Of a DNA stretch of 64,000 bases, positions 17,048 to 60,404 are shown one piece after another. This DNA is from Synechococcus sp. HK01-R (GTDB lineage: Bacteria > Cyanobacteriota > Cyanobacteriia > PCC-6307 > Cyanobiaceae): assembly GCF_014217855.1 (NCBI RefSeq), contig NZ_CP059059.1, positions 620,001-684,000 of the forward strand. The letters are read 5' to 3'. Position 1 is the stretch's first letter. Each line of letters opens with the position of its first letter. Made by a program: the position numbers and the translations under genes. The notes beneath the pieces are model-generated. The model had not been told where the DNA came from, searched no databases, and worked only from the letters and a program-made list of their open reading frames with translations.

Positions 17048-18165
17048 GCGCCTCAGTCACTGTCATCGGAGCCGGAGCCGTTGGGGCCGGCTGCGCCTGG
17101 CGCCTTGCCAAGGCCGGTCATTCCGTCACCCTGATCGATCCCAGCCTCGGCTCTCCACCCCCCTCCGGAGAGCGTTCCGGTCCGCTCGACAGCGGCACCG
17201 TCGCGTCCCTGGGAATCCTGATGGGACTGGTCTTCAGGCGATCCAGTGGTCGCGCCTGGCGCCTGCGGCGACGCAGCATGGAACTCTGGCCGCAATGGGC
17301 AGAGGAGCTCGGTGACCAAGAGCAGCCACTTCAGCTCCAGACACCTTTGGTGCAAGTGGCCGCCACCGCAGAAGAAGGCTTGCGGATGCAAGCGCTTGCC
17401 GAGGAGCGTGAGAGTTCAGGGCTGCGTTTCCTTAGCCAGGAGCACCTGCAGCGGCAGCATCCCGACTGGCCTGGCGGAGAGCATGGAGCCCTCCACTCCG
17501 CCCAGGATGGACGCATTGATCCCCTAGCGCTCCTGAAGGCCCTGCGGAAGCAGCTGACTCGGCTCGATGTGACCCTGATCAGCGAAGCGGTGACGAGAAT
17601 CCGCCGCGCTCAACCATCGCCTGCGCTGATCGGGAAACCCTGGACTCTGGAGCTTCACAGCAGTGGGTTGCTCGAAACCGACCAGGTGGTGATCTGCAGT
17701 GCCCTGGCCGCCCAACCGTTGCTGACAGAACTGGGCCATCAGCGTGCGATGGAACCGGTCCTAGGCCAAGTGCTGGACCTGGAGCTGGCGGAACCAAGCG
17801 CACCCTGCTCCCCCTGGCCGGCAGTGCTGGTCTGCCAGGGCATCAATCTGGTGCGGCAGGGTGCATCGGCGAACGGTCGTCAACGACTTTGGCTGGGAGC
17901 AACCCTGGAGCCAGGAACCCAGGCCGATCCGCAAGCCCTGAACCAGCTGCTCTCCCTGCAAGGCCAGGCTCCCGCCTGGTTGCAGCGGGCAACCGTCGTC
18001 CAGCACTGGCAAGGGCTTCGAGCCCGACCGATCGATCGGCCTGCACCACTCCTGGAGGTGCTCGAACCAGGCCTGATCCTGGCCAGTGGCCACTACCGAA
18101 ACGGTGTGCTGCTGGCTCCGGCAACAGCGGAGTGGGTCTGCGAACAGATCACAACCCGAAGATGA
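17044..18165 (+). CDS. FAD-dependent amine/amino-acid oxidoreductase (DAO family, glycine-oxidase-like)
   Basis: The dinucleotide-binding fold needed by this family starts right after the psbQ stop: 'SVTVIGAGAVGAGCAWRLAKAG' with 'VTLIDPS' 20 residues later. It is encoded upstream of the first ATG in frame (17221). No ATG, GTG or TTG in frame precedes it. The simplest start is CTG 17044, overlapping the psbQ TGA by 4 nt (CTGA), giving 373 residues. An ATG 17221 start would delete the FAD-binding site. The C-terminal part 'GLRARPIDRPAPLLEVLEPGLILASGHYRNGVLLAPATAEWV' is typical of the DAO/ThiO family, so a role in thiazole synthesis is possible but not shown. Confidence 0.8.
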   Translation: MSASVTVIGAGAVGAGCAWRLAKAGHSVTLIDPSLGSPPPSGERSGPLDSGTVASLGILMGLVFRRSSGRAWRLRRRSMELWPQWAEELGDQEQPLQLQTPLVQVAATAEEGLRMQALAEERESSGLRFLSQEHLQRQHPDWPGGEHGALHSAQDGRIDPLALLKALRKQLTRLDVTLISEAVTRIRRAQPSPALIGKPWTLELHSSGLLETDQVVICSALAAQPLLTELGHQRAMEPVLGQVLDLELAEPSAPCSPWPAVLVCQGINLVRQGASANGRQRLWLGATLEPGTQADPQALNQLLSLQGQAPAWLQRATVVQHWQGLRARPIDRPAPLLEVLEPGLILASGHYRNGVLLAPATAEWVCEQITTRR

Positions 18166-39594: not shown

Positions 39595-40707
39595 GTGCCG
39601 GTGTCTCTGCTCCAGAAGCTGCGCAGGCGTCTGATCACCGGTCCTGTGATGCAGGACTGGCCAGGCCTGATCGAGGCCTACAGGAGCTGGCTCCCCGTCA
39701 GTGACGCTACGCCTGTCATCACCCTGAGGGAGGGAGCCACCCCCCTGATTCCCGTGCCTTCAGTCAGCGAGCGGATCGGCCGCGGCGTGAAGGTCTACGT
39801 GAAGTACGACGGTCTGAACCCAACGGGATCCTTCAAAGACCGGGGCATGACCATGGCGATCAGCAAAGCCAAGGAAGCAGGCTGCGAAGCAGTGATCTGC
39901 GCCAGCACCGGCAACACATCCGCTGCAGCTGCCGCCTACGCCCGCCGGGCCGGCATGCGGGCGTTTGTGCTGATTCCCGATGGCTACGTGGCCCAGGGAA
40001 AACTGGCTCAGGCCTTGGTCTACGGCGCCGAGGTTCTAGCAATCCGTGGAAACTTCGATCGCGCCCTCGACATCGTGCGTGAAGTTTCCGACCGCTATCC
40101 GGTCACCCTGGTGAATTCGGTGAATCCCTACAGGCTCCAAGGACAGAAGACAGCTGCCTTCGAAGTGATCGAAGCCCTGGGTGATGCTCCGGACTGGCTG
40201 TGTATTCCCATGGGTAATGCGGGCAATATCACCGCCTACTGGATGGGGTTCCAGGAGTACCACCAAGCTGGTCGCAGCCGCAGGCTGCCCCGAATGATGG
40301 GGTTCCAGGCCAGTGGATCCGCCCCACTCGTCAACGAGACCACGGTGGAAGATCCAGAAACGATTGCCACAGCGATCCGGATCGGTAATCCAGTGAACCG
40401 GGAGAAAGCGATCTCAGCCCGCCAGGCCAGCAATGGCGCCTTCCTCGACGTCACCGATGCCGAAATCGTGGCCGCCTACAAACTGCTGGGAGGGCAAGAA
40501 GGTGTGTTCTGCGAACCCGCCAGCGCCGCATCCGTCGCCGGTCTACTGAAGCGGAAGGATGAGGTGCCGAGCGGAGCCACTGTGGTGTGTGTGCTCACAG
40601 GCAATGGCCTCAAGGATCCCGATTGTGCGATCCAGAACAACGATGCCTCCTTCCACACGGATCTCGATCCAGACCTGGGCACGGTGGCCAAGGTCATGGG
40701 GTTCTGA
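39595..40707 (+). CDS. thrC: Threonine synthase
   Basis: The enzyme converts O-phosphohomoserine to threonine with PLP. The 370-residue protein is of the short class. Its PLP lysine lies in '[19 protein letters not shown]', the phosphate-binding loop is '[15 protein letters not shown]', and '[19 protein letters not shown]' and '[17 protein letters not shown]' follow. It starts at GTG 39595. It ends in a strong intrinsic terminator and is the last gene before the putative origin. Confidence 0.96.
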
Positions 40708-40724
40708 AAACAGAGCGAAGTCTC

Positions 40725-40748
40725 CCCCCTCTTAGAGGGGGTTTTTTT
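40725..40748 (+). terminator. Strong intrinsic terminator after thrC
   Basis: CCCCCTC and GAGGGGG form a 7 bp stem with a TTA loop, followed by seven T. It lies 17 bp after the thrC stop and closes the left replichore's last plus-strand transcript before the origin gap. Confidence 0.93.
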
Positions 40749-40815
40749 ATGAGTCAGCACCGCAACCAGCCAGCAAACTGCCTGCGGAAGACGGCTGCCA
40801 ACCATTTCCAGAACC

Positions 40816-40824
40816 CGTGGAAAA
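40816..40824 (-). promoter_or_regulatory. DnaA-box-like 9-mer
   Basis: TTTTCCACG on the minus strand differs from TTTTCCACA at the last base. It is the partner of the identical plus-strand 9-mer 147 bp further on. Confidence 0.5.
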
Positions 40825-40970
40825 CCCTGGCAAACAAGCCTCGTCGACCAACGGCATCGTCTCCACAGCCTGTGCAATCTGTGCAGAACGGTTATTTCTC
40901 CAGATCAGCCTCCTCTCTCTCCCCAGGGCTGTGAACTGGAGATCGTCCATGAGGCAGGCGCTCTGGGCCT

Positions 40971-40979
40971 TTTTCCACG
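40971..40979 (+). promoter_or_regulatory. DnaA-box-like 9-mer
   Basis: TTTTCCACG on the plus strand, followed about 30 bp later by the AT-rich stretch. A box next to a candidate unwinding element is the arrangement expected of an origin. Confidence 0.5.
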
Positions 40980-41138
40980 CTTTCCCCAGCACCGACTACG
41001 GCTGTTTGGATTGGTTTTAAAAAAGATCTAATCCTTAATCCGGATCAGGAACAAACCAGATCCAATGCCATTGCACTTCTCCCGAGCCTGTGAAACCGTG
41101 GGAGGCCATTCAGAATCAACGGTCCAGACGTTGACGCC

Positions 41139-42275
41139 ATGAAACTGGTCTGTTCCCAGGCTGAACTCAACGCCGCTCTGCAGCTGGTCAGTCGCGCTGT
41201 CGCGTCCCGCCCGACCCATCCGGTGTTGGCCAATGTGCTGCTCACGGCCGATGCCGGAACAGGTCGGCTGAGCCTCACCGGGTTTGATCTCAATCTCGGC
41301 ATTCAGACGTCCCTGGCTGCCTCTGTTGACAGCAGTGGAGCCGTCACCCTGCCCGCCAGGCTCCTGGGGGAGATCGTTTCGCGGCTCTCGAATGAATCTC
41401 CAGTAACCCTGGCGTCGGATGAGGCGGGGGAACAGGTGGAGCTCACCAGCCTCAGCGGCAGCTATCAGATGCGTGGCATGCCCGCTGATGAATTCCCCGA
41501 GCTGCCGCTCGTTGAGAACGGCACAGCCCTGCGATTGGATTCGGCGGCCCTCGTGCGAGCCCTGCGGGCCACCCTCTTCGCCAGCAGCGGTGATGAAGCC
41601 AAGCAGCTGTTGACCGGCGTGCATCTCCGCTTTGAGGGGCGCCATCTTGAGGCTGCCTCCACGGATGGTCACCGACTGGCGGTGCTGGCGGTGCCCGATG
41701 CCCTTCAGGAGGATCAGGACGAGCTCGCGGTGACCTTGCCCGCCCGCTCCCTGCGGGAGGTCGAGCGCTTGGTGGCGGGTTGGAAGGGGGACGACCCTGT
41801 GACCCTTTTTTATGACCGGGGGCAGGTTGTGGTGCTTGCCGCAGATCAAATGGTGACCAGTCGCACCTTGGAGGGCACCTATCCCAACTATCGGCAGCTG
41901 ATTCCCGAAAGCTTCAGCAGGGTGCTCGAACTGGATCGCCGAGGCTTCATCGCCGCTCTTGAACGGGTGGCTGTCCTGGCCGATCAGCACAACAACGTGG
42001 TGCGAATTGCCAGTGACCCCAGCTCCGGTCTCGTGCAGATCAGTGCAGATGTTCAGGATGTCGGCAGTGGTTCTGAGTCCTTGCCCGCCGAGTTGAGTGG
42101 TGAAGCTGTGCAGATCGCCTTCAACGTCCGTTATGTGCTGGATGGTTTGAAAGCCATGGAGGGTGATCGGATCCGTCTTCGTTGCAATGCCCCCACCACG
42201 CCGGCTGTCCTCTCGGCCGCCGATGATGAATCCAGCTTCACCTACCTGGTGATGCCTGTTCAGATCCGCAACTGA
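41139..42275 (+). CDS. dnaN: DNA polymerase III beta subunit (sliding clamp)
   Basis: The 378-residue protein has the three clamp domains in series: 'MKLVCSQAELNAALQLVSRAV' opens domain 1; 'LRATLFASSGDEAKQLLTGVHLRFEG' and 'LEAASTDGHRLAVL' lie in domain 2; 'PNYRQLIPESF' leads into domain 3. It ends 'SFTYLVMPVQIRN', matching the usual conserved C-terminus. It forms a dimeric ring that tethers polymerase III and organises mismatch repair. It starts at ATG 41139. In this organism group it is conventionally gene number one of the genome. Confidence 0.98.
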   Translation: MKLVCSQAELNAALQLVSRAVASRPTHPVLANVLLTADAGTGRLSLTGFDLNLGIQTSLAASVDSSGAVTLPARLLGEIVSRLSNESPVTLASDEAGEQVELTSLSGSYQMRGMPADEFPELPLVENGTALRLDSAALVRALRATLFASSGDEAKQLLTGVHLRFEGRHLEAASTDGHRLAVLAVPDALQEDQDELAVTLPARSLREVERLVAGWKGDDPVTLFYDRGQVVVLAADQMVTSRTLEGTYPNYRQLIPESFSRVLELDRRGFIAALERVAVLADQHNNVVRIASDPSSGLVQISADVQDVGSGSESLPAELSGEAVQIAFNVRYVLDGLKAMEGDRIRLRCNAPTTPAVLSAADDESSFTYLVMPVQIRN

Positions 42276-59829: not shown

Positions 59830-59891
59830 CCCCCCATGCTGCCTCGCGCCAGGCCTCGCTTAGAACACCATCATTGCTTTTGCTCTCTGCC

Positions 59892-60404
59892 ATGACCTTT
59901 TCCATTCGGCAGCGGCTACTGAGCCGTCGCTCTCTGCTGGGCCGCGTCATGGTGGTTGCGTTCGGTTGGATGGCAGCTCCCAGGCCTGTCCTGGCGGCGT
60001 CTAAGGCAGCAGACCCCGCCTGGACTCTCTCGGATGCTGAATGGAAGCGTCGGCTCACACCAGAGGCCTATCAAGTGTTGCGGCGGGAAGGGACCGAGCG
60101 CCCCTTCACCAGTCCCCTGAATGGTGAGAAGCGCAAGGGCACGTATCACTGCGCTGGCTGTGACCTGCCTCTGTTTTCCTCTGCCGCCAAGTTCGACAGC
60201 GGTACGGGTTGGCCCAGCTTCTGGGAGCCGTTGGCCGGTGCGGTTGCCACGAAAGTAGATTTCAAATTGATCATTCCGCGCACCGAGTACCACTGCCGTC
60301 GTTGCGGGGGCCATCAGGGTCATGTGTTTGATGACGGTCCAAGGCCCACCGGCAAGCGCTACTGCAACAACGGCGTCGCCCTCCGGTTCCAGCCCTCTGC
60401 ATGA
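59892..60404 (+). CDS. msrB: Peptide-methionine (R)-S-oxide reductase MsrB with a twin-arginine signal
   Basis: MsrB repairs oxidised methionine. The protein (170 residues from ATG 59892) has a signal with 'LSRRSLLGRVMVVAFGW', matching S/TRRxFLK of Tat substrates, and an Ala-x-Ala cleavage region (PVLAAS). The mature part has two zinc CxxC pairs ('CAGC', 'CRRC'), 'FDSGTGWPSFWEP' and the catalytic cysteine in 'RYCNNGVALRF'. An exported MsrB would act in the periplasm or thylakoid lumen. TTG 59874 would add six residues. Confidence 0.93.
   Translation: MTFSIRQRLLSRRSLLGRVMVVAFGWMAAPRPVLAASKAADPAWTLSDAEWKRRLTPEAYQVLRREGTERPFTSPLNGEKRKGTYHCAGCDLPLFSSAAKFDSGTGWPSFWEPLAGAVATKVDFKLIIPRTEYHCRRCGGHQGHVFDDGPRPTGKRYCNNGVALRFQPSA

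What the first reader, a model, noticed from the sequence alone, without database searches (positions are those of the whole stretch)
40708..41138. Candidate oriC: inverted DnaA-box-like pair plus AT-rich element upstream of dnaN
The 431 bp gap is the longest gene-free stretch here. It carries TTTTCCACG twice in inverted orientation 147 bp apart, weaker relatives, and a 30 bp stretch with only 7 G/C right before dnaN. An origin beside dnaN is established for Synechococcus elongatus and assumed for picocyanobacteria. The box spelling (final G) and the small number of strong boxes are worth recording.
Basis: partly seen in the sequence, partly recalled or inferred. Interest (0 to 1): 0.6.

Follow-up and report, generated by a model that had tools for sequence, protein, structure and literature searches.

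The report
Cyanobacterial replication origin with variant DnaA-trios
This stretch is almost certainly where this marine Synechococcus-type bacterium starts copying its chromosome, and the three-letter repeats that the starter protein DnaA is thought to grip carry a cytosine swap, which laboratory work in another bacterium suggests can still work.

Summary
The gap 40708-41138 (thrC - gap - dnaN) is the chromosome origin. On the one-contig 2.48-Mb genome, 20 of 20 sampled 20-kb stretches fit one GC/AT-skew switch at this gap and one near the antipode. In 29 genomes of the genus (window included) the gap holds a nearly indel-free array ending in two abutting DnaA boxes (40971-40988), a 4-nt spacer, trinucleotide repeats (40993-41007) and an AT-rich stretch: the layout of the B. 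subtilis 'basal unwinding system' (BUS). The composite occurs once per genome in 28 of 31 genomes. An origin at this place is already in print for picocyanobacteria.

Not found in print by my searches: the trios deviate from the published NAN rule, and the window's gap fails it. Slot 3 is 3'-GCC/GCT-5' in 29 of 29. In 89 Cyanobiaceae loci trio middles are only A or C (356 of 356); all 22 inferred changes are A<->C, against about 25% at control sites. This matches amino-group recognition shown biochemically in B. subtilis. DnaA keeps all five trio-contact residues. Function of the C-trios is inferred, not shown.

The parts
40708..41138 (.). oriC region: intergenic gap between threonine synthase (thrC) and dnaN
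   Evidence: genes; skew switch; alignment of 29 genomes
40725..40741 (+). terminator-like hairpin plus T-run after thrC; left border, not origin function (2 such sites found against 0.8 expected in shuffles, so weak by itself)
   Evidence: mean major-base frequency 0.85 against 0.57 just left of it in 29 genomes
40859..40867 (+). weak DnaA-box-like site GTCTCCACA; at about this position some congeners carry CTTTCCACA, TTCTCCACA or TTTTCCCCA
40880..40888 (-). weak DnaA-box-like site TTCTGCACA; at about this position some congeners carry TTTTCCCCA, TTTTGCACA or TTTTTCACA
40980..40988 (+). proximal DnaA box 2, CTTTCCCCA, abutting box 1
   Evidence: 6 of 9 columns invariant in 29 genomes
40989..40992 (+). 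4-nt spacer (GCAC)
   Evidence: the best placement uses 4 nt in all 29 genus genomes
40993..41007 (-). DnaA-trio element: + strand CGA-CTA-CGG-CTG-TTT, read on the - strand as 3'-GCT-GAT-GCC-GAC-AAA-5'
41008..41045 (.). AT-rich unwinding stretch (DUE candidate); lowest 30-mer 41010-41039 with 6 G/C. The 30 bp after trio 4 average 78% AT in 29 genomes, against 48% for the last 431 bp before dnaN
41068..41100 (.). gapless conserved block between the AT-rich stretch and dnaN; role unresolved (dnaN leader/promoter or weak inverted DnaA site)
   Evidence: block 41067-41100, mean major-base frequency 0.86
41139..42275 (+). dnaN (DNA polymerase III beta clamp), origin-adjacent marker gene

Best explanation
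The gap is the single, bidirectional, DnaA-dependent chromosomal origin. DnaA binds the abutting boxes at 40971-40988, helped by distal sites out to 40816 that raise its local concentration. From there a DnaA filament is loaded onto the adjacent trinucleotide repeats on the - strand (40993-41007). It captures the first two bases of each trio and melts the AT-rich stretch at 41008-41045, where the helicase would load. The trios are a variant: here slots 1 and 3 have cytosine in place of the middle adenine. DnaA should still accept them, because both bases offer the amino group that Asn187 (B. subtilis numbering) contacts. Shown here: skew, box and trio conservation, the base-substitution pattern, DnaA residues. 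Inferred: DnaA binding, unwinding and the use of C-trios.
For: Skew: 9 of 9 sampled left-arm stretches have negative GC and positive AT skew, and 11 of 11 right-arm stretches the reverse. The switch is at the gap; the terminus lies between 1.88 and 1.98 Mb, and the antipode is at about 1.90 Mb. The 20 kb on either side of the gap have GC skew -0.027 and +0.044. Composite of box pair plus trio element: exactly once per genome in 28 of 31 genomes of the genus, each 130-170 bp upstream of dnaN, with two reversed-control hits in all (the pattern was built from these genomes, so its uniqueness, not its presence, is the test). G003 misses because the element lies across the record ends; G014 and G017 have no dnaN match. 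40793-41008 has almost no indels in 29 genomes. The canonical version (TTTTCCACA pair, 4 nt, CTACTACTACTA) sits upstream of dnaN in many other cyanobacterial families. Trio middles: 244 A, 112 C, 0 G/T in 89 loci x 4 slots. All 22 tree changes are A<->C, against 24-27% for the same changes at dnaN fourfold sites, nominal P 9e-14. DnaA keeps N187, I190, I193, R202 and E228 in 29 of 29 genus DnaAs found. B. subtilis biochemistry shows A->C tolerated (PMC10721633).
Against: No binding, unwinding or marker-frequency data for this organism. dnaA lies 908 kb away; dnaA apart from dnaN is reported for cyanobacteria (PMC7198777, passage). The window's gap fails the published BUS rule as I coded its first step. 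18 of 29 genus genomes pass at the box pair, but 16 of these only in a shifted frame 15 nt from box 2 and 2 in frame from slot 4 on, so another reading of the repeats is possible. Parsimony changes are not strictly independent, and repeat slippage could multiply them. 25 of 114 loci were left out of the count: 24 with a box-pair score below 13 of 18, and L067, which was mis-anchored. Read by eye 23 of the 25 fit; L050 has CAA in slot 4 and L060 shows no element. With L067 still in, the tree gave 3 other changes, which match its mis-anchored letters. Outside the family some later slots do depart: of 27 CTA-first loci, L188, L197, L213, L222 and L224 have G or T middles (+ strand C or A) within slots 2-4.
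Confidence: 0.85

Rival explanations
1. It is the origin, but the in-frame repeats are not read as trios. Only the two boxes plus the AT-rich stretch matter, or DnaA uses a shifted run of A-middle triplets further in (GTT-TTA-GTA...).
For: The published rule picks the shifted run in 16 of the 18 rule-passing genus genomes; the spacer is then 15 nt, within the allowed 0-16 (rule).
Against: Spacer and slots are conserved (63% of columns 40989-41007 at >=90%), while the AT-rich part into which the shifted run extends is not (3%). Middle bases in slots 1-4 move only between A and C; slot 5 middles are mixed (T>A, T>G, T>C on the + strand). The window itself has no run that passes the rule.
Confidence: 0.1
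2. The conserved blocks are mainly dnaN promoter and leader elements under DnaA or other control; initiation happens elsewhere.
For: A conserved block lies at 41068-41100 near dnaN.
Against: The skew switch coincides with the gap. No sigma-70-type promoter match was found in 40650-41200 (a simple scan). Boxes, repeats and AT-rich stretch stand in origin order and match the dnaN-side arrays of other cyanobacterial families.
Confidence: 0.03
3. A second or the true origin lies near dnaA (1.569 Mb), where three TTTTCCACG fall within 18 kb.
For: TTTTCCACG at 1551482, 1557370 and 1563288; dnaA at 1569171.
Against: GC skew is positive on both sides (samples at 1.488 and 1.612 Mb). No box within 2 mismatches of TTTTCCACA in the 90 bp upstream of dnaA.
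Confidence: 0.02

Closest known systems
Basal unwinding system (BUS) of bacterial origins: DnaA boxes plus DnaA-trios (B. subtilis incC; tested in vitro with S. elongatus DnaA), PMC8287927, PMC6669920, PMC10721633
   Same: Two co-oriented abutting boxes, short spacer, trinucleotide repeats on the opposite strand reading 3'-G-x-x-5', then AT-rich DNA; distal boxes upstream
   Different: Middle base C instead of A in slot 3 of all 29 genus genomes (and in slot 1 here), so the window fails the published rule of three NAN trios; weaker boxes
Predicted picocyanobacterial origin next to dnaN (PMC2836286 for Prochlorococcus; PMC7522525 sets base 1 of marine picocyanobacterial genomes 174 bp before dnaN)
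   Same: Same place; thrC and dnaN as flanking genes in PMC2836286
   Different: In the passages I read, those papers give place, flanking genes or DnaA boxes nearby, not the box-trio anatomy or the variant trios
Cyanobacterial oriC with DnaA boxes TTTTCCACA (Cyanothece 51142, Anabaena 7120, S. elongatus), PMC4674748 (passages)
   Same: In Cyanothece: boxes and AT-rich stretch upstream of dnaN
   Different: Those list several perfect TTTTCCACA; here the gap has none, the ninth base is free and the array is degenerate

Membership tests
DnaA-dependent bacterial chromosome origin (oriC) | Replication-strand skew switches at the site | tested here: met
   20 of 20 sampled stretches consistent
DnaA-dependent bacterial chromosome origin (oriC) | Cluster of DnaA boxes conserved in relatives | tested here: met
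DnaA-dependent bacterial chromosome origin (oriC) | AT-rich unwinding element beside the boxes | tested here: met
DnaA-dependent bacterial chromosome origin (oriC) | Intact DnaA encoded in the genome | tested here: met
   TIGR00362 at 515 bits, cut-off 343.9
DnaA-dependent bacterial chromosome origin (oriC) | Replication starts there / DnaA binds there | not testable with these tools
   needs marker frequency or footprinting
Basal unwinding system (BUS) | Co-oriented tandem DnaA boxes, the better one <=2 mismatches and the other <=4 | tested here: met
   TTTTCCACG (1 mismatch to TTTTCCACA) and CTTTCCCCA (2)
Basal unwinding system (BUS) | Trio array within 16 bp downstream on the opposite strand, first base usually G | tested here: met
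   4-nt spacer after box 2; first base G (+ strand C) in slots 1-4 of 29 genus genomes, except TTA in slot 2 of 8
Basal unwinding system (BUS) | At least three consecutive trios with middle adenine (3'-NAN-5') | tested here: not met
   window: middles C-A-C-A-A; no rule-passing run on either strand of the gap (first step of the published search, box taken as TTTTCCACA). So it works like a BUS with variant trios, and is not a member by the strict rule
Basal unwinding system (BUS) | Boxes and trios both needed for DnaA to open the DNA | not testable with these tools
   needs the strand-separation assay

The most novel reading that the evidence does not exclude
Picocyanobacterial origins use a relaxed trio code 3'-G(A/C)N-5', read through the amino group of the middle base. 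A<->C swaps have happened repeatedly (22 inferred changes) and C-trios become commoner as local G+C rises (Spearman 0.72, 83 loci), so natural evolution has run the A-to-C experiment done in B. subtilis. If so, the NAN rule used to find such origins misses a real class, and G/T middles are the forbidden ones in this family.
Probability: 0.72. Interest if true: 0.6.

Novelty: new variant of a known kind. Interest (0 to 1): 0.5.

Why it matters
The origin itself is expected. The variant trios matter because they give independent evolutionary support for a recent structural claim (capture of the middle base through its amino group by DnaA Asn187) and name natural origins in which to test it. They also suggest a wider search rule, 3'-G(A/C)N-5', for the 15% of bacterial origins in PMC8287927 where no trios were found. 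For marine picocyanobacteria they give an exact candidate place for the unwinding start, useful for growth estimates from sequencing depth.

Tried and rejected
Rejected: dnaA-proximal origin (skew); an RNA gene in the gap (no tRNA, and no Rfam match at gathering score, in the window); final G as a signature; 'longest gap'; a sigma-70-type promoter in the gap (none by a simple scan). The first composite pattern had a one-base spacing error and hit 9 of 31 genomes; corrected (28 of 31). The first placement of trios used trio letters in its score, which could bias the middle base; repeated with boxes only and a fixed 4-nt spacer. An ISM regular expression missed most DnaA rows; replaced by an alignment. 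DnaA was compared only in 29 genus, 14 other-genus and 13 other-family genomes, not for the 71 named loci.

Papers. Three searches bear on natural C-middle trios and showed no report of them; one search lists 16 papers from 2022 on with 'DnaA-trio', of which I saw passages of four (PMC10721633, PMC10225481, PMC10797057, PMC13220808) and only the listing of the rest. Searches were about where picocyanobacteria replicate from. I read sections 13 and 14 part 1 of PMC8287927 and sections 10-11 of PMC10721633; of the other cited papers I saw passages. Supplementary files and preprints were not open to me. A 2026 review passage still calls the motif NAN (PMC13220808).

Full report
What was checked. 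The window lies at 620001-684000 of a 2,479,154-bp genome in one contig. The gap 40708-41138 sits between threonine synthase (TIGR00260, 331 bits) and dnaN (TIGR00663, 326 bits). The two TTTTCCACG are at 40816-40824 (-) and 40971-40979 (+), and the AT-rich stretch at 41010-41039 has 6 G/C of 30. Two exact copies in 431 bp, with 15 in the genome, has P about 3e-6; nine looser matches against 1.16 expected gives P about 4e-6 (words chosen post hoc). At one mismatch the gap ties with two other places in the window. Three details were wrong or weaker than stated: the AT-rich stretch ends about 100 bp before dnaN, two other uncovered stretches are longer by a crude ORF cover, and the last base of the box is not constrained.

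It is the origin. Of 20 sampled 20-kb stretches, the nine on one arm all have negative GC and positive AT skew and the eleven on the other arm the reverse. The switch falls at this gap and the other between 1.88 and 1.98 Mb; the antipode is at about 1.90 Mb. dnaA is 908 kb away, at 1,569,171-1,570,580, inside one arm. Published work places picocyanobacterial origins here: Prochlorococcus origins are flanked by dnaN on the 3' side and threonine synthase on the 5' side (PMC2836286, passages), and marine picocyanobacterial genomes were numbered from 174 bp before dnaN as approximately the origin (PMC7522525, passage). In 12 of the 29 genus genomes with dnaN the record has dnaN at base 174. So the place is not new.

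Anatomy. I aligned the gap in 29 genomes of the genus (the window and 28 others; 2 of 31 had no dnaN match). The left 80 bp, with the terminator-like hairpin, is freely variable (29% gaps). From 40793 to 41008 there are almost no gaps (0.2% or less). Mean major-base frequency is 0.85 at the distal inverted box, 0.88 at the abutting pair, 0.88 at the spacer and trinucleotide element and 0.86 at 41067-41100, against 0.57-0.63 in between; the start of the dnaN coding sequence gives 0.88. The CCAC core is in the first box only in 14 genomes, the second only in 9 and both in 6, while the pair as a whole is always kept. A pattern for pair plus trio element is found exactly once per genome in 28 of 31 genomes and always at dnaN; the reversed control gives two hits in all. 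The pattern was built from these genomes, so the informative part is that it occurs nowhere else in them. The three misses are explained: the element lies across the record ends in G003, and G014 and G017 have no dnaN match.

The wider family. Upstream of dnaN in many other cyanobacterial families the same place carries TTTTCCACA-TTTTCCACA, four bases, CTACTACTACTA and AT-rich DNA. A scoring hit was found in 31 of 43 such loci, 27 of them beginning with CTA; 12 had none, and ten of the 43 showed no box within one mismatch in 900 bp. This is the layout of the basal unwinding system described in B. subtilis. PMC8287927 (sections 13 and 14 part 1 read) shows that S. elongatus DnaA opens its own box-plus-trio scaffold and that both parts are needed. 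In B. subtilis a distal box acts from afar, in either orientation, to raise local DnaA (PMC6669920, passages), which is a reasonable role for the 40816 box and the weak sites between.

The variant. The published rule asks for at least three consecutive trios with middle adenine on the strand opposite the box. The window has C-A-C-A-A in slots 1-5 and no rule-passing run on either strand of the gap (I coded the first step of the published search, with TTTTCCACA as the box). At the box pair 11 of 29 genomes fail, 16 pass only through a shifted frame 15 nt from box 2, and 2 pass in frame from slot 4 on. Slot 3 is CGG (28) or CGA (1) in 29 of 29. To avoid bias I anchored on the box pair alone with a fixed 4-nt spacer in 114 Cyanobiaceae loci: 29 genus, 14 other-genus, and 71 of the 80 named loci (L009-L017 left out as probable duplicates; some of the rest may overlap between sets). 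Ninety scored 13 or more of 18 and one of these, L067, was mis-anchored. In the remaining 89 loci x 4 slots, on the trio strand, the first base is G 347, A 9; the middle is A 244, C 112, G or T 0; the third is T 232, C 113, A 10, G 1. On a dnaN tree rooted with four other-family loci, all 22 inferred middle-base changes are A<->C (11 each way), first-base changes are G<->A only, and third-base changes are of several kinds. At 56 dnaN fourfold sites on the same tree the changes matching A<->C are 24% and 27%, nominal P 9e-14. Repeat slippage and shared ancestry weaken that figure but do not explain the absence of G and T. Of the 25 excluded loci, read by eye, 23 fit; L050 has CAA in slot 4 and L060 shows no element. 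Outside the family, of the 27 CTA-first loci only L203 shows a C-middle (CGG, slot 4), while L188, L197, L213, L222 and L224 have other middles within slots 2-4, mostly where the repeat breaks off or shifts frame. So the A-or-C-only pattern is a statement about Cyanobiaceae.

Why that is telling. In the B. subtilis complex the first two bases of each trio are captured: G by Arg202 and Glu228, and A through its amino group by Asn187; the third base is not captured. Changing the middle A to C kept strand separation near native and, in vivo, supported faster colony growth and more initiation than G or T. The authors say this raises the possibility that homologues read a range of sequences (PMC10721633, passages and sections 10-11 read). 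The natural pattern here has that shape: first base nearly fixed, middle base A or C, third base looser. The DnaA of all 29 genus genomes in which it was found keeps Asn187, Ile190, Ile193, Arg202 and Glu228, as do 13 of 14 other-genus and 13 of 13 other-family ones compared; the exception, G173, has Ser and Lys at two positions but canonical trios. The searches named under Tried and rejected found no report of natural C-middle trios; that is a limited search.

What is shown and what is not. Shown: place, skew, conservation, substitution pattern, DnaA residues. Inferred: DnaA binding, filament loading, melting at 41008-41045, and acceptance of the C-trios. Not resolved: the conserved block 41068-41100.

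Noticed in passing
window 41068-41100: Gapless, strongly conserved block (CCATTGC-CTTC ... CCTGTGAAA) between the AT-rich stretch and dnaN in the 29 genus genomes; could be dnaN leader/promoter or a weak inverted DnaA site.
   Followed up: partly
G000:C1:1551482, 1557370, 1563288: Three of the genome's 15 TTTTCCACG lie within 18 kb of dnaA.
   Followed up: no
window 17392-17888 and 59830-60321: Stretches of 497 and 492 bp not covered by a crude ORF cover, with no tRNA and no Rfam match at gathering score.
   Followed up: no
L237 (G173): DnaA of a small, AT-rich same-family genome has Ser and Lys at the positions of Asn187 and Arg202 that hold the trio bases, while its trios are canonical.
   Followed up: no
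L195, L211, L215, L216, L218, L219, L220, L221, L223, L225: No DnaA box within one mismatch in 900 bp upstream of dnaN in these other-family cyanobacteria; G156, G163 and G170 have no DnaA match at all, in line with published loss of DnaA dependence in some cyanobacteria (PMC7198777, passages).
   Followed up: partly
G117 and G132: 12 and 6 DnaA-like matches in one genome each, against 1 in most of the 146 genomes.
   Followed up: no
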